Under the pieces are notes generated by a model that saw only the letters and a program-made list of their open reading frames with translations, ran no database searches and was not told the DNA's origin. A stretch of 47,416 nucleotides of DNA from a virus. Position numbers and translations under genes: made by a program. The stretch lies in the IMG/VR virus record IMGVR_UViG_3300048439_000064, positions 1 through 47,416 of that record, one strand, 5' to 3'. Positions within the stretch are counted from its first letter, which is position 1. The number at the start of each line of letters is the position of its first letter. Positions 5,982 to 32,408 of the stretch are shown here, in pieces.

Positions 5982-8900
5982 ATGTCGAAAAAAAGACAAA
6001 ACAGAAATACTAGTAAGTTTAAAAAAGCAGCGGCTTCTCAACGTGCGCGTGTTCCATTCCGTACCGGCGGTCCTTCAGATCGAAGGCGTCCTACAGCAGA
6101 AGAAAGGAAAGGGAAAACTACTAAAGAGACTACTGATAATAAAATTACTGGGGGTGTAAAAACTACCGGTTCTACTAAAAGTACGTCTACTAAAGCAACA
6201 GCTGGTATTAAACCTACTAAAGAAACAGGAACAGCTTCAACTACAAAGCAAGAAACTCCTGATAATTCTCCAGCACAACAAGCTGCCGGACAACAAGCTG
6301 AAGCAGCTAAAGCAGCTGAAGCAGCAAGGCAAGCTGAAGCAGCTAAAGCAGCTGAAGCAGCAAGGCAAGCTGCTGCAACAAAAGCAGCACAAGAAGCTGC
6401 TGCAACAAAAGCAGCGGAAGCAGCAAGGCAAGCTGAAGCAGCAAAAGCAGCGGAAGCCGTAAGGCAAGCTGAAGCAGCTAAAGAAGCTGAAGCAACAAGA
6501 CAAGCCGAAGCAACAAAAAAAGCACAAGAAACTACGGCTACAACTCAAGAAAAAACAAAAAAATTGCAAGAAGAAACAAGAAAAAAGCAAGCAGAAACAA
6601 CTGCTCGTCAAGAGGCTGCAGAAGCTAGTGGTTTTGAAGAAGAAGCTCAGGCTACTCAAGCCGAAACAACAAAAAAAGCACAAGAAAATACGGCTCGTCA
6701 AGAGGCTGCAGCAAATAGCGGTGTTGAACAAGAATCTAAAAATCAACAAGCCGAAACAGAAAAGCAAAGAACAGCAGCTGATAGTGCGGCACTGCCTCCT
6801 GACAGTAGTGAACTAACAGAAGGATCACCAGATAGTTCTACTTCTAGTTATGAAGAAGGCAGGCGTCGGCAAGAAGACGCAAGGGCAGCAGAAGAAACAA
6901 CAACAGCAGCAACTGAAACAGCAGACAATCAATCTTCAATGCCTGTGCGAGAAAATTTTGAGTCAGATCAAGAATATAATATTGCTTTAGCTCAGTTTTA
7001 TACAAATAATTTAACGACTTCTTATACAAACACTTCTGTTCCTATGCCTACAGAAGCTCCTATAAACCTACAAACAACTCGGCCAGACCTTCCTGTACTA
7101 GAAAAAGTAGTGGCAGAAAAAGTAGAGGAGGGAGATCCTTCTGTTGTAGAGCAAATGGATGATACTGGAGATGCAGAAGTTACAGAAGCTGAAGCAACTG
7201 AAGCAGTATCTGTTGGTGAAGCAGAAACAACCACAGCCGGTGCGCCTCTTGAAACTGAAGCATCAACAATGCAAGCAGCAATTGCAGAAGGCGTAGCACC
7301 CGGAGAAGCAGTAACGGGCGAAGTTAGTGACGAAGCTCTTGCAAAAGTCGAAGAAGGTACAATAACGCAACCGGCTGTTGCTGCTACAAGAGATTCAGCG
7401 GCTGAAGAAGCAGCAAAGGCTGTTGCGGCACAACGACCAGAAGAACAAAAGTATGTTCAAGCCATTACATCTGATGAGCGATATAAAGTTATTGAGGCTG
7501 AAGATCCTGAAGTAGCTACTCGTGTTGCACAAACTATTTCAAAACGTGCAGAAAAAGATTTAATGGATATTGTCACGGGTGAAGGTGTTAATCTTGATGA
7601 TATCCCAGAATTTAAACTTGCTGAAAAACGAACAGCGCAAGTTGCTGAAGCTCAACAAGGTATTGCACAAGAACTAGGTGATGCACCTTCTGTAGATCTT
7701 AAAGGTCGTCAAGCTATTCTTGGAGAAGCTCCTAAAGGCGATGCTGCTCAGATTGGCGGTATTCCTACTATGGAAGCGGCCTCTCGTCAGGCCATAACGG
7801 GCGAGGCTCGTAAAGCAGCTGCAGCAGACATGAATGCTGTTGTTGGTAATCTTCCTCCTGAAATTACAGCGGCAGTACTTGAAGATCCTCAAACTGTTGA
7901 AGCTCAGTTAGATACTGCGCCTGTAAGAGTAAAGGCGGCTGTAGCGGCTCTTCCACAAGAAGCTCTTGTTTCTACTCAGATGGAAGGTCTTCTTGCAGGA
8001 ATGGAAGATGGTAAAATACCATTATGGGCTAAACCTGCTGTTGATGCAATGAACTCTCAAATGGCTTCTAGAGGCCTCAGTACGTCCACTGTAGGGCGAG
8101 ATGCACTTTTTAATGCTATCATACAGAGTGCGCTTCCAATCGCTCAGAGCAACGCTCAAGCGCTTCAGCAACGTGCTTCACAAAACCTTAGTAATGAACA
8201 ACAGGCAAATCTTCAACAGGCGTCTCAGGTCATGCAACAACGCATGGCAAACCTTTCTAATCGTCAAACCGCTGCATCTCAAACAGCACAAATGGCGCAA
8301 GAAATAACTATTCGCCAAGGTGAGTTTGAGCAACAAGCTATACTAACAAGCGAGCAACAAGAACAACAAGTTCGTATGCAGAACATTCAGAATGCTCAAC
8401 AACAAGCATCACAAGAGTCTGCACAACGCCAACAAGTAGCAATAGCTAATTTAGATGCTGGCACTAAAATGGATCTTGCAAATTTAGAAGCTTTAAATTT
8501 AGCAAGCTCACAAAACTTAAACGCAGAACAACAGGCTCGATTAACAAACTATAATGCTACAGTTGCTAGAACTATGCGTCAAGCAGAACTTGACCAAGAC
8601 ATGGAAAAAGCTAACTTATCAGCAGAGCTTCAAATAGAGTTAAAAAATCTAACCGAAGAAAATGCTGCTTCTCGTGATACGATGACCGCAGAAAATCAAG
8701 AGCGATTAGCAAACTTAAATGTTTTAGTAGACTTTAAAAAGACTAATGCTGCACTTGCACAGCAGATGGATCTTGCAAACATGAATGCTGCACAGCAAAC
8801 AGAACTTGCAAACTTAGCTGAAAGAGCAGCAACAGACTCAGCAAACTTTTCTGAGGCCAATCGTTTTAGGCTACAAGAGCTATCTACTGCGGCTAATGTT

Positions 8901-10019
8901 CTTTCACAAAATGCACAGCTTCGTCAGAATGCAGAAATGGCAAAGCTTTCAGCATCTGAAAAAGTTACACTTGCAAATTTATCAGCTAAGAATCAAGCAG
9001 ATTCAGAATCTATGACAGCTGAAAATGTTGCGGCGTTACAGGTTTATGAAAAGAAAATGCAAGCGGGGCAAGTTAACGCACAACTAGCACAGCAAATGGG
9101 ACTTGCAAACCTTAACAACCAACAAGAATCTGCAATGTTTAATGCACAGATTGATGCTAATCTTGATATGGCTCAGTTCAACGCTGACCAACAAGCGGCT
9201 ATGGCTAATAGTCAGTTCATGCAATCAATGACCATGAAAAACTATGATGCTAAACAACAAAGCATTATGCAAAATGCATCAGCTATGGCTTCTATGGACA
9301 TGGCAAATCTTGATGCTCGTACAAAAATTGCAGCACAGAATGCACAAGCATTTTTACAAATGGACATGGCTAACCTAAATAACGAACAGCAAATGGCCGT
9401 TATGAATCAACAACAGGCACAGCAAACCATGTTGTCAAATCAATCGGCTGAAAATGCATCACGCCAGTTTAATGCAGCTAACGAACAACAAGCTGACCAG
9501 TTCATGGCTAGTTTAGCAGCTCAAGTAGATCAGTTCAATGCATCTCAAAGCAATAGCATGGAACAGTTTAATGTATCTGAAGGTAATCGCATTGCAGCTC
9601 AAAATGCTCAGAACCAAACACAAGTATCTCTTGCTAACGCTCAAATGTCAACAGATATTAGTAAATTAAATGCTCAGATGGATCAACAACGTGAACAGTT
9701 TAATACTGCAAACAAACAAGCAATTGAGCAAGCAGACATTGCATGGCGACGACAGGCTAACACAATTAACACTGCTGCGGCTAATGCGGCTAATCAACAA
9801 AATGTTATGAATTCGTTTAACCTAGACATGACAGAGCTTCAATATGTTTGGCAAGAACTTAGAGATAATGCAGCATATACTCGACAAGCTTATGAAGGCC
9901 AGCAGGATAGAGAAACTCGACTAATAGCTACAGCTCTTGGCAATGAATCAGCAGCCAGTGGAGATAAAAATTCAAGCACAACATCCGCTCTTATGCGATT
10001 AATTCAGGGATATATCTAG
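5982..10019 (+). CDS. Giant low-complexity helical virion protein (putative internal/ejection protein)
   Basis: A 1345-aa protein. Residues 1-60 are basic (KKRQNR..., RRR). Residues 95-290 are an Ala/Glu/Lys/Gln/Arg repeat of the type QAEAAKAAEAAR, like the helical domain II of TolA. Residues 290-500 are acidic and disordered (E/T/A rich). Residues 500-650 are a more globular, charged region. Residues about 680-1260 are one long Gln/Asn/Ala/Met helix with recurring units such as MDLANLNNEQQ and QFNA. The C-terminus (RDNAAYTRQAYEGQQDRETR...) is helical. GGAG lies about 10 nt before the ATG. It heads the run of large proteins between holin and lysozyme, where T7-like phages place internal core or ejection proteins. 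No enzyme motif is visible. It is probably an internal virion protein; a long filament or tape-like role is an alternative. Confidence 0.85.
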   Translation: MSKKRQNRNTSKFKKAAASQRARVPFRTGGPSDRRRPTAEERKGKTTKETTDNKITGGVKTTGSTKSTSTKATAGIKPTKETGTASTTKQETPDNSPAQQAAGQQAEAAKAAEAARQAEAAKAAEAARQAAATKAAQEAAATKAAEAARQAEAAKAAEAVRQAEAAKEAEATRQAEATKKAQETTATTQEKTKKLQEETRKKQAETTARQEAAEASGFEEEAQATQAETTKKAQENTARQEAAANSGVEQESKNQQAETEKQRTAADSAALPPDSSELTEGSPDSSTSSYEEGRRRQEDARAAEETTTAATETADNQSSMPVRENFESDQEYNIALAQFYTNNLTTSYTNTSVPMPTEAPINLQTTRPDLPVLEKVVAEKVEEGDPSVVEQMDDTGDAEVTEAEATEAVSVGEAETTTAGAPLETEASTMQAAIAEGVAPGEAVTGEVSDEALAKVEEGTITQPAVAATRDSAAEEAAKAVAAQRPEEQKYVQAITSDERYKVIEAEDPEVATRVAQTISKRAEKDLMDIVTGEGVNLDDIPEFKLAEKRTAQVAEAQQGIAQELGDAPSVDLKGRQAILGEAPKGDAAQIGGIPTMEAASRQAITGEARKAAAADMNAVVGNLPPEITAAVLEDPQTVEAQLDTAPVRVKAAVAALPQEALVSTQMEGLLAGMEDGKIPLWAKPAVDAMNSQMASRGLSTSTVGRDALFNAIIQSALPIAQSNAQALQQRASQNLSNEQQANLQQASQVMQQRMANLSNRQTAASQTAQMAQEITIRQGEFEQQAILTSEQQEQQVRMQNIQNAQQQASQESAQRQQVAIANLDAGTKMDLANLEALNLASSQNLNAEQQARLTNYNATVARTMRQAELDQDMEKANLSAELQIELKNLTEENAASRDTMTAENQERLANLNVLVDFKKTNAALAQQMDLANMNAAQQTELANLAERAATDSANFSEANRFRLQELSTAANVLSQNAQLRQNAEMAKLSASEKVTLANLSAKNQADSESMTAENVAALQVYEKKMQAGQVNAQLAQQMGLANLNNQQESAMFNAQIDANLDMAQFNADQQAAMANSQFMQSMTMKNYDAKQQSIMQNASAMASMDMANLDARTKIAAQNAQAFLQMDMANLNNEQQMAVMNQQQAQQTMLSNQSAENASRQFNAANEQQADQFMASLAAQVDQFNASQSNSMEQFNVSEGNRIAAQNAQNQTQVSLANAQMSTDISKLNAQMDQQREQFNTANKQAIEQADIAWRRQANTINTAAANAANQQNVMNSFNLDMTELQYVWQELRDNAAYTRQAYEGQQDRETRLIATALGNESAASGDKNSSTTSALMRLIQGYI
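6295..6366 (+). repeat. Two perfect 36-bp tandem repeats in the Ala-rich coding region
   Basis: Positions 6295-6330 and 6331-6366 are identical 36-mers, each coding the 12-aa unit QAEAAKAAEAAR (phase-shifted). Further degenerate copies run on to about 6500. The identity at synonymous positions indicates recent duplication by slippage or recombination. Confidence 0.9.
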
Positions 10020-13515: not shown

Positions 13516-16500
13516 ATGACTACTAAAATGATTAATCTTTTTGGAGAAGAGGCAGGAGTGCCATATTCTGATTTTTTTTCAGACGAAAAAGAAAAAAATG
13601 TTGTTAGTCCTCTTAGAAAAACTGTTCCTGACTATGTTAACCCCTTTAATTACGAACGCGTTACTCCTAAAGAGCAGCAATCTATAACAGAATTAGATAC
13701 TGATCCCGTGCTTCTTGAAAAATTTAATAGAGTTATGGAATACTTAGGGGATAACAGTGCTTTTACTAATAGTGTTTTTGACCCTACAAGCACTATCTCT
13801 GAAACAATGCGCGACGACAACATAAGCATTGCAAAGCTTATTGATAAAACAGTAGCGTTTAAAGATGCTCCCGATAGTATAAAACAAGATTATGCTGATA
13901 TTAAAAACAGCTGGGATGATGCAGGAAAAAAAGGCTTTACAGAATGGATGGATATGTTTCAAGACTACACTGTAGATATTGCAACTGATCCTGCCGTATT
14001 AGCAGGCATAGCAGGAACTTTTTTTACTGGCACAGCTAGCGCAGTTGCTGCTGGAGGCACTCAGCTTACTGCTCGGGCAGCTTTGGCTAATACACTTCGT
14101 CGTGCAGCAGCAGGGGCTGTAAAAACAACAGGTGGTTCTGGATACAAAGGAACTGCTGTTAGAAGTGCCGCTGCAAGTGGAATATATGACATTGCAGGAC
14201 AACACTTAGATTTAGCAATCAAACGTCAAAAAGAGTATAGTCCCACACAAACAGCAATTACAGCAGCAATAGGTGGAGTAGCTGGACCTGCACTTGAAGC
14301 AGGAGTAAGAGCAAGCGCCCCTCATTTTAAAAGGTTTCTTTTTGGAAAATCAAAAGTAAACCAACAAGCAAGCGAAGGAGTCTTTGAAGAAACTATAGAT
14401 TTTAAAACAAGAGAAGATAGGGCTAGAGAAGCTTTTGAGGCCGCAGCAGAACAAGCTGAAAAAGGCGAAATGGGGTACTATACTCCTACGGGTCAAACTA
14501 AAGATTCTTTTCCAGCATTAATAGGTTTGCCCGGACGAGCAGCAAAAGTAGCGAAAGATCTTGAGACAAGAGTTATTGAAGGTCGTATTATTGATTTAGA
14601 AGAAGAAAACTATTCAATACTTGATGATCTTGTAGATGATCTTGGAGGTGGTCAAGCTACTAAAGAGTTTGTTGTAGACGCTGTTAATGTAGCACAGAAC
14701 CAACCAGATCCTGAAAAAGTAGCCGTTACGTTTTTTAATAAACTACACAGGTTTTCTGCAGGAGCGTCTTCAACCATGTTTTTTGGAAAAGCTTCTGGCA
14801 TTTTATCTCCTTATCGTAAATATTCTGAAACAGCCAAGCAGCTTCAAGGTAAATTTTCAAGAGAGTTTAACAAAGTGTGGCGTGGTAATCAATTTAAAAT
14901 TGAAGGAGATTTTGCTGAAGTACAACAAAGATATAATGGTGAATTCTACACTACATATATTGATATTGTTGAACCCCTTTCCTATGACAAAGTTAAAGGT
15001 AAATTAAAAGATAATGTTAATGCTTCTTTAAGCATGGCAATGCGGGGTGTAGATTCTGATGTTGCAGGATTAGAGCCTGTATATGAAGCCGCTAGAAAAA
15101 TGCAAGAATTATATTCTGATATTGGTGATCGACTTGTTGCAGCTGGAGTTATTGATAAAAAAGTAGATAACTATATTCCTCGTATGTGGAATAGAACGGC
15201 TATTGAAAAAAATCCAGATCGTTTTGCACAGCTTCTTGTAGATCAAGGAGAAGCAAATAATATAGCGGACGGTCGTAGAATTATGGAAGACTTATTAGAA
15301 AAACGCAACCAGCTCGACTCTGGAACTGACGGACATTTTTTCTCAGCTAAACGAAAGTTTAATAATATTCAAGATGATTTTGTTTTTGAAGAGTTTTTAA
15401 ATACAGATGTGTTAGGAACTTTACATAACTATACGCACCATGCAGCTAAGTCACTTGCTAAAAAAGAAGTGTTTGGTGTTAATAATATTAAAGAATTTGA
15501 AGCCAAGTGGATTAATCCTATTGCAGAAGATCACTATAATTCTACAGGAAAAAGCTTATCAAAAATTGAAAAATCGCTTATCATGAACTTGTATCGCAGC
15601 GCTACTGGTGAGGGTCAACAAAACTTTGAATATATACAGACAGGCATGGACACGTATGGTTTAATGAATCGACTAGCTTACTTAGGAGGAGCAACTATTT
15701 CAAGTCTTACGGAAGTTTTTGTTAATATAGCTGATGCGGGATTTGTAAAGAGTGTTAAAGGTTTTAATGATGCTCTTGAAACATCTTTTAAACTAGTAAC
15801 AAAAGATACAGAAACAAAATTAAAAAATCAAATGGGTCTTACCGCTGCAGAAATTAAAAAAGAAATGTTTGAATTTAGTATTGCAGTAGATCAAGGAGTT
15901 TCTCAAATGGGAAACAGGCTTGCAGGAAATGATTTACAGTCCGATAGACTACAAGGAGTTAGCAACGGTTATTTTAAATTTATTGGCCTTGACCTTTGGA
16001 CAAAGTTTGCACAAACCGTAACTTTTGCAACCGGCAAGCGTTTAATCATGGGGAATTTAGAAGAAGTTTCTGAATACCTTTCATCAGGAGCTAAAATTTC
16101 AAGTCGTATTCAAAATAAAATAGATGAATTAAATGAGTTAGGAATTGATATTGAGGAAGGAACGTCTTGGCTTGGTTCAGGAGCAAACTTGCAAGACTCT
16201 TATTACAAGGAAATAAAACAAGCCGCTGCTCGTTATACTAATGATGTAGTGCTAATGCCTGATTCTATGGCATCAACACGACCTATGATGTATTCACACC
16301 CAAAAACTCAACTGGCATTTCAGCTTCTTTCATATCCAGCAGCCTTTACTAATGTTATTTTAAAAGGAGCAGCTAAAAAACTAACTAGAAACCCAAAACA
16401 AAATACAGCTAATGTTTTATTGTCTGGTCTTTTTATGATGGAGGGTCAACGAATAGTACAGTACCTTAAAACTGGAGGAAAAAGCGAAGAGGACAAAACT

Positions 16501-16998
16501 CCTTCTGAAGCTCGTATAGAAGCTATGAAAAGGGTAGGCGCACCCGGTTTATTATTTCAACAAATTGACAGAGCTACAGAAACTGCTGGGTACACAGGAA
16601 CAGTAACTCCGTTTTTAATTGCCCCGTTTGGTCCAGCAGGCTCTGATATAGCAGGCGTTGCTCAAGGAAGACCAGTGCAGACTTTAGGTACTAAGGCTCC
16701 TTTCTATTCTTTGTATGGTAATGTTGCAAAAATAACAGGGAACGAAGACGAGTATGAAGACTATAAACAATACTTTAAAGATTTAGACAGGACCGGCAGC
16801 GAAATTCTGCGAACTGATAAACCTATTATGACTAGAGATTTATTTTCAAAGGGGGGTGTAGTGGAAGTACCTAATGCTCCAGAAGAGCCTGATGAGCGTA
16901 TAGATAAAATGACAGGTCAGCCTTACAACGAACAAGCTGGCCTTGCTTTTATTGACGAAGAAGATCCTAAGCCTGTATCACTGTTGTCTAAGGTATAA
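13516..16998 (+). CDS. Large internal virion / ejection protein
   Basis: A 1160-aa protein. Residues about 150-190 and 245-265 are hydrophobic Ala/Gly-rich segments (DPAVLAGIAGTFFTGTASAVAAGG). The central part (300-1000) is helical and charged, with Pro-rich turns such as DKKVDNYIPRMWNR. A conserved-looking C-terminus has FSKGGVVEVPNAPEEPDERID followed by GQPYNEQAG. I recall similar C-termini on large virion proteins of uncultured marine podoviruses. In size and position it fits the large ejection protein (T7 gp16-like role). I see no lysozyme or transglycosylase motif. AAGGA precedes the ATG. Confidence 0.8.
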   Translation: MTTKMINLFGEEAGVPYSDFFSDEKEKNVVSPLRKTVPDYVNPFNYERVTPKEQQSITELDTDPVLLEKFNRVMEYLGDNSAFTNSVFDPTSTISETMRDDNISIAKLIDKTVAFKDAPDSIKQDYADIKNSWDDAGKKGFTEWMDMFQDYTVDIATDPAVLAGIAGTFFTGTASAVAAGGTQLTARAALANTLRRAAAGAVKTTGGSGYKGTAVRSAAASGIYDIAGQHLDLAIKRQKEYSPTQTAITAAIGGVAGPALEAGVRASAPHFKRFLFGKSKVNQQASEGVFEETIDFKTREDRAREAFEAAAEQAEKGEMGYYTPTGQTKDSFPALIGLPGRAAKVAKDLETRVIEGRIIDLEEENYSILDDLVDDLGGGQATKEFVVDAVNVAQNQPDPEKVAVTFFNKLHRFSAGASSTMFFGKASGILSPYRKYSETAKQLQGKFSREFNKVWRGNQFKIEGDFAEVQQRYNGEFYTTYIDIVEPLSYDKVKGKLKDNVNASLSMAMRGVDSDVAGLEPVYEAARKMQELYSDIGDRLVAAGVIDKKVDNYIPRMWNRTAIEKNPDRFAQLLVDQGEANNIADGRRIMEDLLEKRNQLDSGTDGHFFSAKRKFNNIQDDFVFEEFLNTDVLGTLHNYTHHAAKSLAKKEVFGVNNIKEFEAKWINPIAEDHYNSTGKSLSKIEKSLIMNLYRSATGEGQQNFEYIQTGMDTYGLMNRLAYLGGATISSLTEVFVNIADAGFVKSVKGFNDALETSFKLVTKDTETKLKNQMGLTAAEIKKEMFEFSIAVDQGVSQMGNRLAGNDLQSDRLQGVSNGYFKFIGLDLWTKFAQTVTFATGKRLIMGNLEEVSEYLSSGAKISSRIQNKIDELNELGIDIEEGTSWLGSGANLQDSYYKEIKQAAARYTNDVVLMPDSMASTRPMMYSHPKTQLAFQLLSYPAAFTNVILKGAAKKLTRNPKQNTANVLLSGLFMMEGQRIVQYLKTGGKSEEDKTPSEARIEAMKRVGAPGLLFQQIDRATETAGYTGTVTPFLIAPFGPAGSDIAGVAQGRPVQTLGTKAPFYSLYGNVAKITGNEDEYEDYKQYFKDLDRTGSEILRTDKPIMTRDLFSKGGVVEVPNAPEEPDERIDKMTGQPYNEQAGLAFIDEEDPKPVSLLSKV

Positions 16999-17000
16999 AT

Positions 17001-18863
17001 ATGATAGGACCATTTGTAAGATCTATTGCAAAAGCAACAAATAATTCTTTGCGAGATGATTACGTAGAAGCAACCGCTGAAAAACTTAATACGGTTGTTC
17101 GTGATTTTGAAGGCTCACAAAATCCTTCAGATGAAATGCTTTATGATTTTGAAGACTATGTTGACGTGCTTACTCAATACACTGTTAAAAAAGATAATGC
17201 AGATTTAGAAGACGTGTTAGAGTTTGAAAGACTTAAAAGACTTGTAGATCCTAATCAAAGTTATCGTAATCAAATTTCATCTTCTTTATCAGACGTTAGG
17301 TCTTTAGTTAAAATTACAGACAAGTTTACAAAAGAAAGTAAGGCTCTTCCTGAAGAAGTAGCTCCTTTAGCTAAAGTGGCTGGAGATGCTTTGTTAGATG
17401 AAAGGAGTAAAGCACTTTCTCCGTTTGTGACAAAGGAAGCTAAACAAAAAATTGGCTCTAATGTCTTAAACGAACTATTAGAAGTAGATACATACAAACC
17501 TATTATTGAAGCTATTGCTAGGCGAATGCCAGAAAACCAAACAGTTGATGAGCTACAAGCAAGTGCAAAAGAACGGGCGCAGAATAAAGTAGATTTTACT
17601 AGAAACAGTGTTGAAAAGAAACCACAGTTTAGAGCTACTACAAGTCACCATGACCTACCATACGACATTTCATTTGCTTACCCACGAGAGTTAGGGACGC
17701 ATGTAGGGACGCTAGGACAAGCAACATCTATTGCTGTTCAAGGCGTAAACCCTTATAGCGATATAGGGCGATACTTAGATTCTCGTCTAGCACCAACACA
17801 AAAAGCTGATGTAGATAGGTTTTTTTCTTCTCAAGAGATGGTTGAAATTAAAGACGTAGTAGATAAACCCATGAAAGCTTCAAGACCTTCTGCCATGAGT
17901 AAAGGTTATATCAATGTAAAGAACCCTTTAAAGATTGATTATGACGTTAAGGAATGGAGTGCTGAATATTTTTTAGTAGACCAAGGTCAGAAAATTTATG
18001 ATTCAATTGTAAAACAAGCAGGTAATCTTGCCAGCCCTCAACTTAAAAAAGATTTTACAGATCTTATAAAAACTGCCCAAGAAATAACGGATACTGAATG
18101 GAAAAAAAGTTTAGGTTTAGATTCAGCAATGCGTATAAGCCTACAAAAAGTAGAGCTAAATTTTAAATTTCAAAAACTTCTGCAGCGTAATGGCTTTGAT
18201 TCTGTCCGATATAAGAATGAAGTTGAAGCATCTCTGAAGGGGGAGCCTAAGTATTCTTATATTCTTTTTAAACCTGAGCAGTTCAAGTCTACAACCGCTA
18301 AGTCTTATGATAAGGGAGATCCACGCTTTACATTTAATGAGGGCGGTCCTGTAGAGCGTAGCGAAAGTGTAATACCATTAAACATTAAAGCTTTTATTGG
18401 GGATCTGTTAGGTTACGACACACCTATCACTGAAAAACATTTAGACGAAGAAGAATATCAAAGCCTAGTAGAAATTGCTCGTCGTGCTAAAGAAGCAGGA
18501 AAAAGCGCTATTGAATATTCAGACTATCAAACTCAATCAAAAGGTCAATCTCAGTATGCAGATGTTGGGGGCGGTGGCGGAAACCTTGATTTCTTTAAGA
18601 AAATATTTGATCCAAAGTATAGTTTAAAAACTACTTTAGGACAAGCTCAAATTGAAGAAGACAGTGAGGGAAATACAATTATTAAAGATCGTTATAATTT
18701 TAACAATGCTTCTGGTGATATGGACGCTATTGATTTTATAAAAGGCGTTAAAAGTGCAGGGACTAACATATACGCACAAGCAAGAAATGTAGCCACTGCG
18801 TTTGGAAGTGCGCCCGGAGAAGGCAGCGAGGTTAAAATTAATTTAGGAAGATTAGACTCTTAA
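17001..18863 (+). CDS. Virion-region protein with ADP-ribosyltransferase-like domain
   Basis: A 620-aa protein. Residues 1-200 are helical. Residues about 209-445 read like the ADP-ribosyltransferase domain seen in phage polyvalent proteins (ART-PolyVal). The matching pieces are FRATTSHHDLP (R211, H216/H217), ELGTHVGT (230-237), GYINVKNPL (302-310), GFDSVRYKNEVE (398-409, N406-E407) and SYILFKPEQFKS (419-430). The remainder (446-620) is charged and Gly-containing, ending INLGRLDS. It lies 2 nt after the large ejection protein gene and just before the lysozyme gene. If it is packaged and injected, it could modify host proteins, as T4 Alt does to host RNA polymerase. The fold call is from motif order by eye; the NAD-binding residues are not proven. 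Confidence 0.55.
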   Translation: MIGPFVRSIAKATNNSLRDDYVEATAEKLNTVVRDFEGSQNPSDEMLYDFEDYVDVLTQYTVKKDNADLEDVLEFERLKRLVDPNQSYRNQISSSLSDVRSLVKITDKFTKESKALPEEVAPLAKVAGDALLDERSKALSPFVTKEAKQKIGSNVLNELLEVDTYKPIIEAIARRMPENQTVDELQASAKERAQNKVDFTRNSVEKKPQFRATTSHHDLPYDISFAYPRELGTHVGTLGQATSIAVQGVNPYSDIGRYLDSRLAPTQKADVDRFFSSQEMVEIKDVVDKPMKASRPSAMSKGYINVKNPLKIDYDVKEWSAEYFLVDQGQKIYDSIVKQAGNLASPQLKKDFTDLIKTAQEITDTEWKKSLGLDSAMRISLQKVELNFKFQKLLQRNGFDSVRYKNEVEASLKGEPKYSYILFKPEQFKSTTAKSYDKGDPRFTFNEGGPVERSESVIPLNIKAFIGDLLGYDTPITEKHLDEEEYQSLVEIARRAKEAGKSAIEYSDYQTQSKGQSQYADVGGGGGNLDFFKKIFDPKYSLKTTLGQAQIEEDSEGNTIIKDRYNFNNASGDMDAIDFIKGVKSAGTNIYAQARNVATAFGSAPGEGSEVKINLGRLDS

Positions 18864-18874
18864 GGAAAATAATA

Positions 18875-19300
18875 ATGCAAAGACTTATAGAAACTCTTAA
18901 AAAACACGAAGGTGTTAAATACTATGTGTACAAAGACCATCTGGGTTATGAAACAATAGGCGTAGGACGCTGTATAAAGCGTGGTGTGGGCTTAGGACTA
19001 ACACATGATGAAGTAGACTACCTCCTAATGAATGACGTACAGCGGTGTTTAGAAGAGCTTGACGGGGCGTTTGCTTGGTTCAAAGACTTGACTGAAGTTA
19101 GGCGGGAAGCAATGGTAAACTTGTGTTTTAATCTAGGGCTTACGCGACTCAAAAAGTTTGAAAATGCTTTAGCAGCAATGTCAATCCACAATTACGAAGA
19201 AGCAGCAGATGAGTTTTTAGACAGTCGATGGGCTACACAAGTTGGTCAACGTGCAGTAGAGGTAACAGAAATGATTCGTACTGGAGATATGTATGACTAA
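18875..19300 (+). CDS. Endolysin, T4-lysozyme-type (GH24) muramidase
   Basis: A 141-aa protein that cleaves the MurNAc-GlcNAc bond of peptidoglycan. The catalytic triad of the T4 lysozyme family is visible: E12 in KKHEG, D21 in YKDHLG and T27 in YETIGVG, at the spacing of T4 E11/D20/T26. The helical C-terminal lobe has REAMVNLCFNLG and RWATQVGQRA. There is no signal peptide, so export depends on the holin (5580). Its length is slightly shorter than T4 gpE. AAGGA lies upstream of the ATG, and the stop overlaps the next start by 8 nt. Confidence 0.93.
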   Translation: MQRLIETLKKHEGVKYYVYKDHLGYETIGVGRCIKRGVGLGLTHDEVDYLLMNDVQRCLEELDGAFAWFKDLTEVRREAMVNLCFNLGLTRLKKFENALAAMSIHNYEEAADEFLDSRWATQVGQRAVEVTEMIRTGDMYD

Positions 19301-23864: not shown

Positions 23865-24721
23865 AGCAAGATCTCGTCAACTCGTGGGGGTGCCACGACT
23901 TTAGTAAAGTATGTTGGTCCGTTTGAATATGCGTATGCTTTAAGCCCCTCACCATTATTAGAGTCTGAGTAACATTCAAACTTGTAAGGGCAGTACGCAC
24001 AACCAGAAGGAAGTTTCATGTTTCCTTTCTTACCTTCAGGTATAGGAGCATAACATCGTGAGGGTGGCGTGTCAACAGAAATCGCAGCTCTAACCTTCTT
24101 TATTTTGTCTTTTACATTCGGCTTCTCAAGATCGTCGGGACGATACAAACACAACTCACCGCTCTCTTTGTTGATAACAAGAAAGCCTCCTTCGTTTGTG
24201 TTCTCTGCCGTCTCATATCCTGAGAGCTGTGCTAGATATCCAAAGGGGTCGTTGTCAGCAAGAGTTCCGTTCCTAAACTTATTAAATGCAAACTTAGAAG
24301 CTGTCTTAACGTCCACTACCTCACCGTTAATCTTACAATCCATATGGCCTTTGATGCCAGACACGTCTATTTCTTTTTGTTCTGATGTAACCTCGTGTCC
24401 CGTCATGCGGACTAACATCAAGACAATCTCCTCTAGAAGATGTCCATAAAGAAATTTGATTTGTGTTGCACCGCTAATGGATCGGGCGGTAGAAGGCGTT
24501 TTACTTTCATACCACAACTGTCGTAGGGGTCTTCCGATGTTAGACATCCGCAGGGTAAACTCTGCTTGAGGATCTCGTGGTGTAGCCCAAGACAAGATGC
24601 TTTCTTTAATACGGACAAGAGTATCATCCAGCTCTGTCTCATCAATATTAAGTGGCTCACCGGCTGACAAGCCTTCAAGCCTTCCATATATATCCTGTAT
24701 TAATGTATCTAAAGTATTCAT
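23861..24721 (-). CDS. PD-(D/E)XK exonuclease, RecB/Cas4-like with Cys cluster
   Basis: 286 aa. Catalytic motifs: E97/E98 in the helix GHLLEEIV, D128 in KGHMD, and D137-V-K139 in VVDVKTAS. Four cysteines (C223, C241, C244, C250; CxxCxxxxxC at the end) could bind a 4Fe-4S cluster, as in Cas4 and AddB; the first Cys lies nearer the others than in Cas4. In T7-like phages lacking a gp6 homologue, this family supplies the 5' exonuclease needed for host DNA degradation, primer removal and recombination. It is coupled by ATGA overlap to the GIY-YIG gene upstream and to 23556 downstream. There is no CRISPR context. Confidence 0.85.
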   Translation of the reverse strand: MNTLDTLIQDIYGRLEGLSAGEPLNIDETELDDTLVRIKESILSWATPRDPQAEFTLRMSNIGRPLRQLWYESKTPSTARSISGATQIKFLYGHLLEEIVLMLVRMTGHEVTSEQKEIDVSGIKGHMDCKINGEVVDVKTASKFAFNKFRNGTLADNDPFGYLAQLSGYETAENTNEGGFLVINKESGELCLYRPDDLEKPNVKDKIKKVRAAISVDTPPSRCYAPIPEGKKGNMKLPSGCAYCPYKFECYSDSNNGEGLKAYAYSNGPTYFTKVVAPPRVDEILL

Positions 24722-25275
24722 TCTGATTCCAATTTAACTTGATTTATAATATTACGAGCTTCTTCTGTTGAGCATTGAAACCACTCGCCTTTTTGTTCGA
24801 ACCTTTCAGCTAAGATTGTATGTGCCTTAGCTTCTGAAGCTCGACGGTTACTAACTTTACAATAAGACACTAACTCAAAATCACGAAAAGGGCTAGAAGT
24901 TTGATAGTTTTTTAATCTATCTGTTGCATCTACAGCCATTCCAACCTTTACCCACCCCTCAAATGCAGGGTTGGTTATAACATAAACCTGTCCTTCACTG
25001 GACTTTTTGTAATTCTTTAGTGAGCTAAAAGCTGCAGCCTCAAAACTTTTATACCGTCCGGGCTTGTGTAGGGGGTGTGAAGTAGGAATGTACTTACTGT
25101 CAACCCACATTCGATTTGTGTTTTTATTTATGTGAGCCTTTAAAGTTCTTTTCCCACCGTCTTTTGCGCCAACATAAAAATATTTTCCGTCTTCTTCAAT
25201 AATATTTTTACAGTAATTCATTGTTAGTTCTTTAATATATTCTTCAGTGTGTTTCATACCAGTTGTTTCCGACAT
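24718..25275 (-). CDS. GIY-YIG family nuclease-like protein (T5orf172/homing-like)
   Basis: 185 aa. Residues about 30-85 are a basic/aromatic module (GKYFYVGAKDGGKRTLKAHINK, with WVDSKYIP). Residues about 95-175 are a GIY-YIG domain: GQVYVITN, GWVKVGMAVDATDRLKNY, then SEAKAHTILAERF and GEWFQCS. The VYVI...VKVG form with R (in DRLKNY) and E (SEAKAH) fits the T5orf172/MUG113 branch. GGGAG 8 nt upstream supports ATG 25275. It overlaps the DNA polymerase 3' end by 32 nt and the exonuclease start by 4 nt. It is a free-standing homing endonuclease or a repair nuclease; the target is unknown. Confidence 0.8.
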   Translation of the reverse strand: MSETTGMKHTEEYIKELTMNYCKNIIEEDGKYFYVGAKDGGKRTLKAHINKNTNRMWVDSKYIPTSHPLHKPGRYKSFEAAAFSSLKNYKKSSEGQVYVITNPAFEGWVKVGMAVDATDRLKNYQTSSPFRDFELVSYCKVSNRRASEAKAHTILAERFEQKGEWFQCSTEEARNIINQVKLESE

Positions 25276-31481: not shown

Positions 31482-32408
31482 TCATGCCGCCTTTAAATAT
31501 TTACGAAGGGTTGCAATAGAATCTTGCTGTCGTTTGAACTGAACAGACGCAAGAGTATTTTTGTTACGAACATTATCAGCATGGGTAGTATAGTCTGTCA
31601 CTGCGTTATAGGCTGCCCATTCAGTATTACCAAGCCGAGGACAATATATATTGCGGTAACAATTGACAAGGTAATTAAAACCTGTGTTATATCTTTTGAG
31701 ATGATTACCGATATTGTACGGGCTATATCCTTCTTGGAAAAGCTCATTTACTTGTTCCCCCACGCCTACAATATCTGCAAACATCTTCACTGCAGTTTCA
31801 GGCTCAATTGAATTACTATACATTTCTTTCCACACATCTCTTTCAGCTTCGAAAAAGTCAAGAGATTTTACAATAGTTCTTGAGGCTTTGTCAAGATCTA
31901 AGTTTGTTGTGTGATTACCTTTGAACACTGCGACCTCTCCAGAAATAAACACTTGGAGATTTGTACAGGCCGCTTGGATTGCCGCCGCACTGATGACAAA
32001 TGGAAAGCTACTATCAATAGATGTTGTAGCTAGTAAGCCCAGCGAGGCGTTATCACCATCAGGTGTTTCATAAGTATGTGCTGGTAACTTATATTTTACA
32101 AAGGATCTTGCACCGTCGTGACTTACTGCGATCTGTTCGCTGATGCCCTCAGTGTTAAGACCGCTACGCAAGATTATTTCTCGTGCCGTCTTGATAACAT
32201 CCTTTGGTGCTACCGCCTTGTGTCGAGACGAGTGAATACCTAAAGACTTTTTAGTATCAGTACGATAAGTCACCCACTTATCAGTTTCATGATAACTATA
32301 ATCAGAACTAAACATCGCAGGCGTCGTAGCGATATCAAAGTCTGCGTCACCAAAGCCCCCGAAAATATCAGGGGCGCTAGAGTTAAACATACTTATTACA
32401 TTAGACAT
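31482..32408 (-). CDS. DUF932 protein (phage/plasmid-like protein)
   Basis: 308 aa. The DUF932 pattern is visible: an SDYSYHETDKWVTYRTD N-terminal segment, then FVKYKLPAHTYE, the middle SFPFVISAAAIQAACTNL, and the C-terminal NTEWAAYNAVTDYTTHADNVRNKN. This family is common on phages and plasmids, where it is often found near anti-restriction or DNA-modification functions, but its activity is unknown. AGGAG lies 6 nt before ATG. It is the main large gene of the early cluster and follows the 32684 promoter by one small gene. Confidence 0.85.
   Translation of the reverse strand: MSNVISMFNSSAPDIFGGFGDADFDIATTPAMFSSDYSYHETDKWVTYRTDTKKSLGIHSSRHKAVAPKDVIKTAREIILRSGLNTEGISEQIAVSHDGARSFVKYKLPAHTYETPDGDNASLGLLATTSIDSSFPFVISAAAIQAACTNLQVFISGEVAVFKGNHTTNLDLDKASRTIVKSLDFFEAERDVWKEMYSNSIEPETAVKMFADIVGVGEQVNELFQEGYSPYNIGNHLKRYNTGFNYLVNCYRNIYCPRLGNTEWAAYNAVTDYTTHADNVRNKNTLASVQFKRQQDSIATLRKYLKAA

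What the first reader, a model, noticed from the sequence alone, without database searches (positions are those of the whole stretch)
17001..18863. ADP-ribosyltransferase-like domain in a probable ejected virion protein
Seen: ordered segments FRATTSHHDLP, ELGTHVGT, GYINVKNPL, GFDSVRYKNEVE and SYILFKPEQFKS in a 620-aa protein sitting among putative internal virion genes, 2 nt after the large ejection protein. Known: ART-PolyVal domains occur in phage proteins, and T4 packages ADP-ribosyltransferases (Alt) that modify host RNA polymerase. Inference: this phage has no RNA polymerase, so an injected transferase could redirect the host enzyme, or defeat a host defence.
Basis: partly seen in the sequence, partly recalled or inferred. 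Interest (0 to 1): 0.8.

Follow-up and report, generated by a model that had tools for sequence, protein, structure and literature searches.

The report
ADP-ribosyltransferase domain in phage ejection protein
An uncultured marine phage, and most of its database relatives, carry a well-conserved ADP-ribosylating-enzyme-like domain in the large protein that such phages probably push into the host with their DNA, which suggests they modify host molecules at the very start of infection.

Summary
The 620-aa ORF at 17001-18863 is real, starts 2 nt after the large internal-virion ORF, and residues ~205-440 form a domain homologous to ART-PolyVal ADP-ribosyltransferases. Pfam alone is sub-threshold (20.3 bits, cut-off 31.2), but a 23-sequence profile aligns full length with bona fide ART-PolyVals (hhalign E 1.6e-18; 100 shuffled controls far lower), and the AlphaFold model (pTM 0.81) retrieves PolyVal ARTs from a viral structure library. 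The invariant pocket candidates are R211, H234, N406 and E409, plus S419 where PARPs carry catalytic Glu; 53-55 distinct relatives keep them almost without exception. Bona fide relatives have His in strand 1, whereas this clade has Arg. In 62 of 80 uncultured viral loci with the same ejection-protein core the domain is present: 40 fused in one giant polypeptide, 22 as a split, apparently coupled gene. Some fused relatives add LysM and a lysozyme-like domain. No searched isolate has it. Best explanation: a virion-borne, injected ART module acting on a host target early in infection. Activity, ejection and target (including RNA polymerase) are untested. New variant of a known kind.

The parts
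17001..18863 (+). 620-aa ORF: ART-like domain plus C-terminal ejection-protein module; second half of a split giant ejection protein
17613..18320 (+). ART-PolyVal-like domain (residues 205-440)
   Evidence: Pfam sub-threshold, hhalign E 1.6e-18 over 164 columns, AF2 pTM 0.81, Foldseek viral hits
17631..17633 (+). R211, strand 1 (FRATTS); the position of His in canonical ART-PolyVal (YHGT)
   Evidence: 55/55 distinct relatives; His in the bona fide HxGT relatives
17700..17702 (+). H234 of GTHVGT, strand 2
   Evidence: 53/55; aligned to HFGT of bona fide ART-PolyVals
18216..18227 (+). N406-x-x-E409, proposed catalytic-acid motif
   Evidence: N 54/54, E 53/53; aligned to NxxD/E of ART-PolyVal
18255..18257 (+). 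S419, position equivalent to PARP catalytic Glu
   Evidence: 53/53 Ser; equivalence by motif register
18363..18860 (+). C-terminal module (residues 455-620) shared with the C-termini of giant ejection-like proteins of other marine podophages, including HTVC115P gp40, that lack the ART
   Evidence: phrog_7348 match; tblastn to HTVC115P, SIO1, CRP-4
13516..16998 (+). 1160-aa gp16-like internal virion / ejection core; fused to the ART in 40 relatives
   Evidence: phrog_7348 E 1e-186, phrog_6958 virion structural protein
16990..17003 (+). AAGG Shine-Dalgarno-like site, stop TAA (16996-16998) and ATG (17001): stop/start junction of the split gene
18875..19300 (+). Phage_lysozyme (PF00959) gene immediately downstream

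Best explanation
The gene encodes the second half of a split giant ejection protein. Its middle domain (residues ~205-440) is a divergent ADP-ribosyltransferase of the ART-PolyVal superfamily, most similar to a subgroup with strand-2 motif HxGT. SHOWN computationally: homology and fold; near-invariance of R211, H234, N406, E409 and S419; fusion to the gp16-like core in many relatives; purifying selection. INFERRED: the protein is packaged with the core and ejected with the DNA; R211 and H234 help hold NAD; E409 in the NxxE loop supplies the acid that PARPs carry at the position now occupied by S419; the domain transfers ADP-ribose to a host macromolecule, most likely a protein, in the first minutes of infection. 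The target is unknown; host RNA polymerase is possible by analogy with T4 Alt, but no more than that.
For: Full-length profile-profile match to bona fide ART-PolyVals (prob 99.1, E 1.6e-18; best of 100 column shuffles scored 23.5 against 124.2). The window-family HMM independently retrieves ART-PolyVals, best 43 bits, and two of those retrieved, L089 and L149, are full-length Pfam ART-PolyVals at 74.7 and 86.5 bits. AF2 model pTM 0.81 with an ART-like strand order; Foldseek viral hits include proteins named PolyVal ART at E 4e-5 and 2e-4, probability 1.00. Pfam ART-PolyVal matches 16 of 23 family members. Pocket candidates near-invariant in 53-55 distinct relatives. dN/dS of the ART segment is 0.034 between window and L004, lowest of the three segments. 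In 90 non-redundant ART-PolyVals, Glu at the PARP-like position and NxxD/E in the loop rarely co-occur (1 of 28 against 27 of 62, Fisher p 6e-5). Fusion with the ejection core in 40 of 80 loci, split in 22; LysM and Pesticin-type lysozyme modules on the same chains fit a protein that crosses the periplasm. Iyer et al. 2017 (PMC5512222) predict injected ARTs in polyvalent phage proteins.
Against: The window alone fails Pfam's curated cut-off. The canonical His (strand 1) and Tyr (strand 2) are absent, and the PARP-like Glu position is Ser. No solved ART structure is a convincing Foldseek hit. Virion presence and ejection rest on homology and fusion only. The gp16-like core could not be modelled well (pTM 0.34), so its fold gives no support. 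The NxxD/E exclusion test treats related sequences as independent.
Confidence: 0.58

Rival explanations
1. Pseudo-ART: the domain keeps the ART fold but no transferase activity, and serves as an NAD- or ligand-binding or protein-docking module in the ejection machinery.
For: Canonical H and Y are replaced and the PARP-like Glu is Ser; the domain sits inside a structural protein and is missing in related phages such as HTVC115P, HTVC103P and HMO-2011.
Against: R, H, N, E and S are near-invariant across a family with about 36% mean column identity; bona fide ART-PolyVals already use NxxE plus Ser.
Confidence: 0.22
2. NAD glycohydrolase or small-molecule/nucleic-acid ADP-ribosyltransferase: the injected domain depletes or diverts NAD or modifies DNA, RNA or a nucleotide signal instead of host proteins.
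For: The ART superfamily includes nucleic-acid-modifying and NADase members (PMC9503650); no substrate information is available here.
Against: ART-PolyVals are predicted by Iyer et al. 2017 to modify proteins; no specific support here.
Confidence: 0.13
3. Specific RNA polymerase modifier, functionally like T4 Alt.
For: No RNA polymerase found among the large ORFs scanned, so the phage probably depends on the host enzyme; T4 Alt precedent.
Against: Six related isolate phages show no such domain, so it is not a general need of this kind of phage; the domain is not of the Alt/VIP2 type.
Confidence: 0.12
4. Not virion-associated: a separate late or early effector made in the cell that merely sits beside the ejection genes.
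For: In the window it is a separate ORF with its own ribosome-binding-like site.
Against: Fused in one polypeptide in 40 relatives, and its C-terminal module is the conserved C-terminus of ejection-like proteins.
Confidence: 0.07

Closest known systems
ART-PolyVal (PF18760; Tox-ART-HYD2 clade of Iyer et al. 2017), HxGT subgroup (L089, L149, L204, L206, L208, L209, L213, L217, L241)
   Same: Full-length profile homology; HxGT strand 2, NP strand, D..W, GYDG/GFDS, NxxE, S-Y-I-x-F-x-P-x-Q-I/F-K
   Different: Arg instead of His in strand 1; large helical insert; Pfam score below cut-off; carried by an ejection-protein core
Polyvalent proteins of phages (Iyer et al. 2017, PMC5512222), e.g. the Roseovarius Plymouth podovirus 1 vRNAP with ART
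   Same: Large multidomain, virion-associated protein with an ART and, in relatives, LysM and lysozyme domains
   Different: Core is a gp16-like ejection protein, not a virion RNA polymerase, MuF or portal protein; different ART subgroup
T4 Alt (Alt/VIP2, R-S-E clade)
   Same: Packaged and injected ART is the proposed mode of action; Arg in strand 1
   Different: Different ART clade; no sequence match; acid located in an NxxE loop; target unknown
HTVC115P gp40 and related giant ejection-like proteins of Pelagibacter and Roseobacter phages
   Same: C-terminal module and gene order
   Different: No ART domain

Membership tests
ART-PolyVal (PF18760) | Pfam curated cut-off (31.2 bits) | tested here: not met
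   20.3 bits, E 0.00098; best family member E 2e-5; no ejection-protein copy passes in the records searched
ART-PolyVal (PF18760) | Full-length homology to bona fide members | tested here: met
   hhalign prob 99.1, E 1.6e-18, 164 columns, shuffles far lower
ART-PolyVal (PF18760) | ART fold | tested here: met
   AF2 pTM 0.81; Foldseek viral hits to named PolyVal ARTs, but no convincing PDB hit
ART-PolyVal (PF18760) | His in strand 1 | tested here: not met
   Arg in 55/55 distinct relatives
ART-PolyVal (PF18760) | Tyr in strand 2 | tested here: not met
   H234 (HVGT); but HxGT also occurs in bona fide members
ART-PolyVal (PF18760) | Acidic residue of strand 5 / its loop | tested here: inconclusive
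   E409 in NxxE invariant and aligned with NxxD/E of members; whether it is catalytic is unknown
ART-PolyVal (PF18760) | ADP-ribosyltransferase activity | not testable with these tools
   needs biochemistry
Polyvalent virion protein | Several unrelated domains in one large polypeptide | tested here: met
   gp16-like core + ART + LysM + Pesticin in relatives; in the window split over two ORFs
Polyvalent virion protein | Injected into the host | not testable with these tools
   inferred from fusion to an ejection-type core
T4 Alt (Alt/VIP2 R-S-E clade) | R-S-E active site and sequence match to the clade | tested here: not met
   No credible Pfam ART match other than ART-PolyVal; strand 2 is HVGT
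gp16-like ejection / internal virion protein | Homology to virion structural / ejection proteins | tested here: met
   phrog_7348 and phrog_6958 for the 1160-aa ORF; tblastn to Pseudomonas phage virion structural proteins

The most novel reading that the evidence does not exclude
The ejection-protein clade defines a distinct ART active-site class, Arg in strand 1, His in strand 2 and the catalytic acid moved to an NxxE loop with Ser at the PARP Glu position, used by abundant uncultured marine podoviruses as an injected host-modifying enzyme.
Probability: 0.35. Interest if true: 0.68.

Novelty: new variant of a known kind. Interest (0 to 1): 0.55.

Why it matters
Injected ARTs in polyvalent phage proteins were predicted in 2017 but, to my knowledge, have little experimental support outside T4 Alt. 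Here the module is a regular part of the ejection apparatus of a marine podophage group related to pelagiphages and HMO-2011-type phages (62 of 80 loci), was missed by Pfam's cut-off, and carries an unusual, almost invariant set of pocket residues. It gives a compact domain for testing whether short-tailed phages ADP-ribosylate their hosts on entry, and whether the ART catalytic acid can move within the fold.

Tried and rejected
PDB sequence searches with the protein and with its profile gave only spurious hits. Foldseek against the PDB gave nothing usable; PARP4 appears only over about 30 columns at E 4.5, and cyanophage A4 pre-ejectosome at E 0.24 is not significant. Profile against the mixed canonical ART-PolyVal set aligned only the C-terminal half; the HxGT subgroup was needed to align strands 1 and 2. 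The structure of the 1160-aa core was too poor (pTM 0.34) to search with. GTDB genomes and isolate phages gave no relative of the domain. A regular expression suggested Lys in strand 1 of L310, but the profile alignment gives Arg. A one-off error or programmed frameshift at the ORF junction was rejected: the same kind of junction recurs in split relatives, with stop/start overlap or a short gap and an AGG-type site. PF00940 search for an RNA polymerase was uninformative because no control rang; absence rests on the PHROG and Pfam scans of the large ORFs.

Full report
OBSERVATION. Pfam finds only a sub-threshold ART-PolyVal match (PF18760, E 0.00098, 20.3 bits, cut-off 31.2, residues 296-434). 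PF01129 does not match.

FAMILY. A scan of IMG/VR with a profile of the domain gave 30 loci, and 23 sequences make up alignment A2. Conserved features are a strand-1 Arg, E-x-G-x-H-x-G, GY-x-V-x-NPL, D...W, GFDS-x-x-Y-x-N-x-x-E and YSYILFxPxQxK. Pfam ART-PolyVal matches 16 of the 23 members, best E 2e-5. No isolate phage in the INPHARED collection and no GTDB genome gave a relative of the domain.

FOLD AND HOMOLOGY. The AlphaFold2 model has mean pLDDT 77.8 and pTM 0.81, with seven strands in an order compatible with an ART core and a helical insert. Foldseek against viral structures returns 20 hits below 1e-3, including proteins named PolyVal ADP-ribosyltransferase at 4.4e-5 and 2.4e-4 with probability 1.00. 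The PDB library gave nothing convincing. A set of canonical ART-PolyVals was seeded from crAss-like phage cr130_1 (89.9 bits, full length). The profile comparison aligns only the C-terminal half (E 1.4e-8). Two canonical members, L089 and L149 (74.7 and 86.5 bits to Pfam over the full model), have H(F/A)G(T/G), D..W, NxxE and S-Y-x-x-F motifs like the window. A profile of six such HxGT members aligns over 164 columns from strand 1 to the end with probability 99.1 and E 1.6e-18; the best of 100 column-shuffled controls scored 23.5 against 124.2. The window-family HMM in turn retrieves ART-PolyVals from the fetched loci, best 43 bits. A tree separates the ejection clade from the HxGT outgroup with 100/99 support.

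POCKET RESIDUES. In 53-55 distinct ejection-clade sequences R211 is 55/55, H234 53/55, N406 54/54, E409 53/53 and S419 53/53. Bona fide HxGT relatives have His at strand 1, so His-to-Arg is specific to this clade in the sample. By motif register, S419 lies where PARPs have their catalytic Glu (PARP register from general knowledge). Among 90 non-redundant ART-PolyVals, those with Glu at that position almost never have the NxxD/E loop motif (1 of 28), while 27 of the 62 others do (Fisher p 6e-5; an earlier, smaller set gave p 0.002). The test ignores shared ancestry. It suggests, but does not show, that the loop acid replaces the PARP-type Glu. dN/dS between the window and L004 is 0.034 for the ART segment, 0.10 and 0.13 for the flanking parts.

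CONTEXT. The 1160-aa ORF matches phrog_7348 and phrog_6958 (virion structural protein) and virion structural proteins of Pseudomonas phages. Of 80 IMG/VR loci with this core, 40 have the ART in the same polypeptide (about 1470-2660 aa in most), 22 have it in the next ORF and 18 show none, some of them truncated by the contig end. Split junctions show a 1-nt stop/start overlap or a short gap with an AGG-type ribosome-binding site, and the most parsimonious count on the tree is three changes of the split label. Relatives add LysM and, in L299, a Pesticin-type lysozyme domain. A lysozyme gene follows in the window. The C-terminal module of the 620-aa protein matches the C-terminal part of HTVC115P gp40, which lacks the ART. 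The phage's terminase and capsid are nearest to Pelagibacter phages HTVC115P, HTVC103P and HTVC104P, then to others including HMO-2011-type phages; HTVC115P, HTVC103P, HMO-2011, CRP-1, HTVC033P and a Pseudoalteromonas phage all lack the ART by profile search. No RNA polymerase was found in the large ORFs scanned, but the contig is not known to be complete.

INTERPRETATION. Homology and fold are well supported. Delivery with the DNA follows from fusion to the ejection core and from peptidoglycan-binding and -cleaving modules on the same chains; it is an inference. Activity is likely from the near-invariance of the pocket, but unproven. The target is open. Iyer et al. 2017 (PMC5512222) predicted injected ARTs in polyvalent proteins and gave the H-Y-D signature; this clade lacks the His and the Tyr and has Glu, not Asp, in the loop, so it is filed as a divergent relative that probably works like an ART, not as a strict member.

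VERDICT. New variant of a known kind.

Noticed in passing
L045 (record of L030), 669-aa ORF next to a portal-like gene: A second ART-PolyVal-like domain, of the canonical FHGA/His type (28.1 bits, sub-threshold), lies in a separate protein of a relative that also carries the ejection-protein ART.
   Followed up: partly
L299:10364-14401: The ejection protein of this relative also contains LysM and a Pesticin-type lysozyme domain downstream of the ART.
   Followed up: partly
L013:1-3303: After the ART this protein has another conserved-looking block (HVRFSDIVSADGKKILLIDEAQSDVHKQG) that resembles, from memory, a domain of polyvalent proteins; no Pfam match.
   Followed up: no
window 5982-10019: 1345-aa Gln/Ala-rich, probably coiled-coil protein without Pfam or PHROG match, upstream of the ejection genes.
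   Followed up: no
L006:3338-3787 (HTVC115P gp46): Annotated toxin-activating lysine-acyltransferase within the internal-virion gene cluster of a related phage; counterpart in the window not identified.
   Followed up: no
window 24718-25275 and 31482-32408: T5orf172-type (GIY-YIG-like) protein and a DUF932 protein in the replication arm.
   Followed up: no
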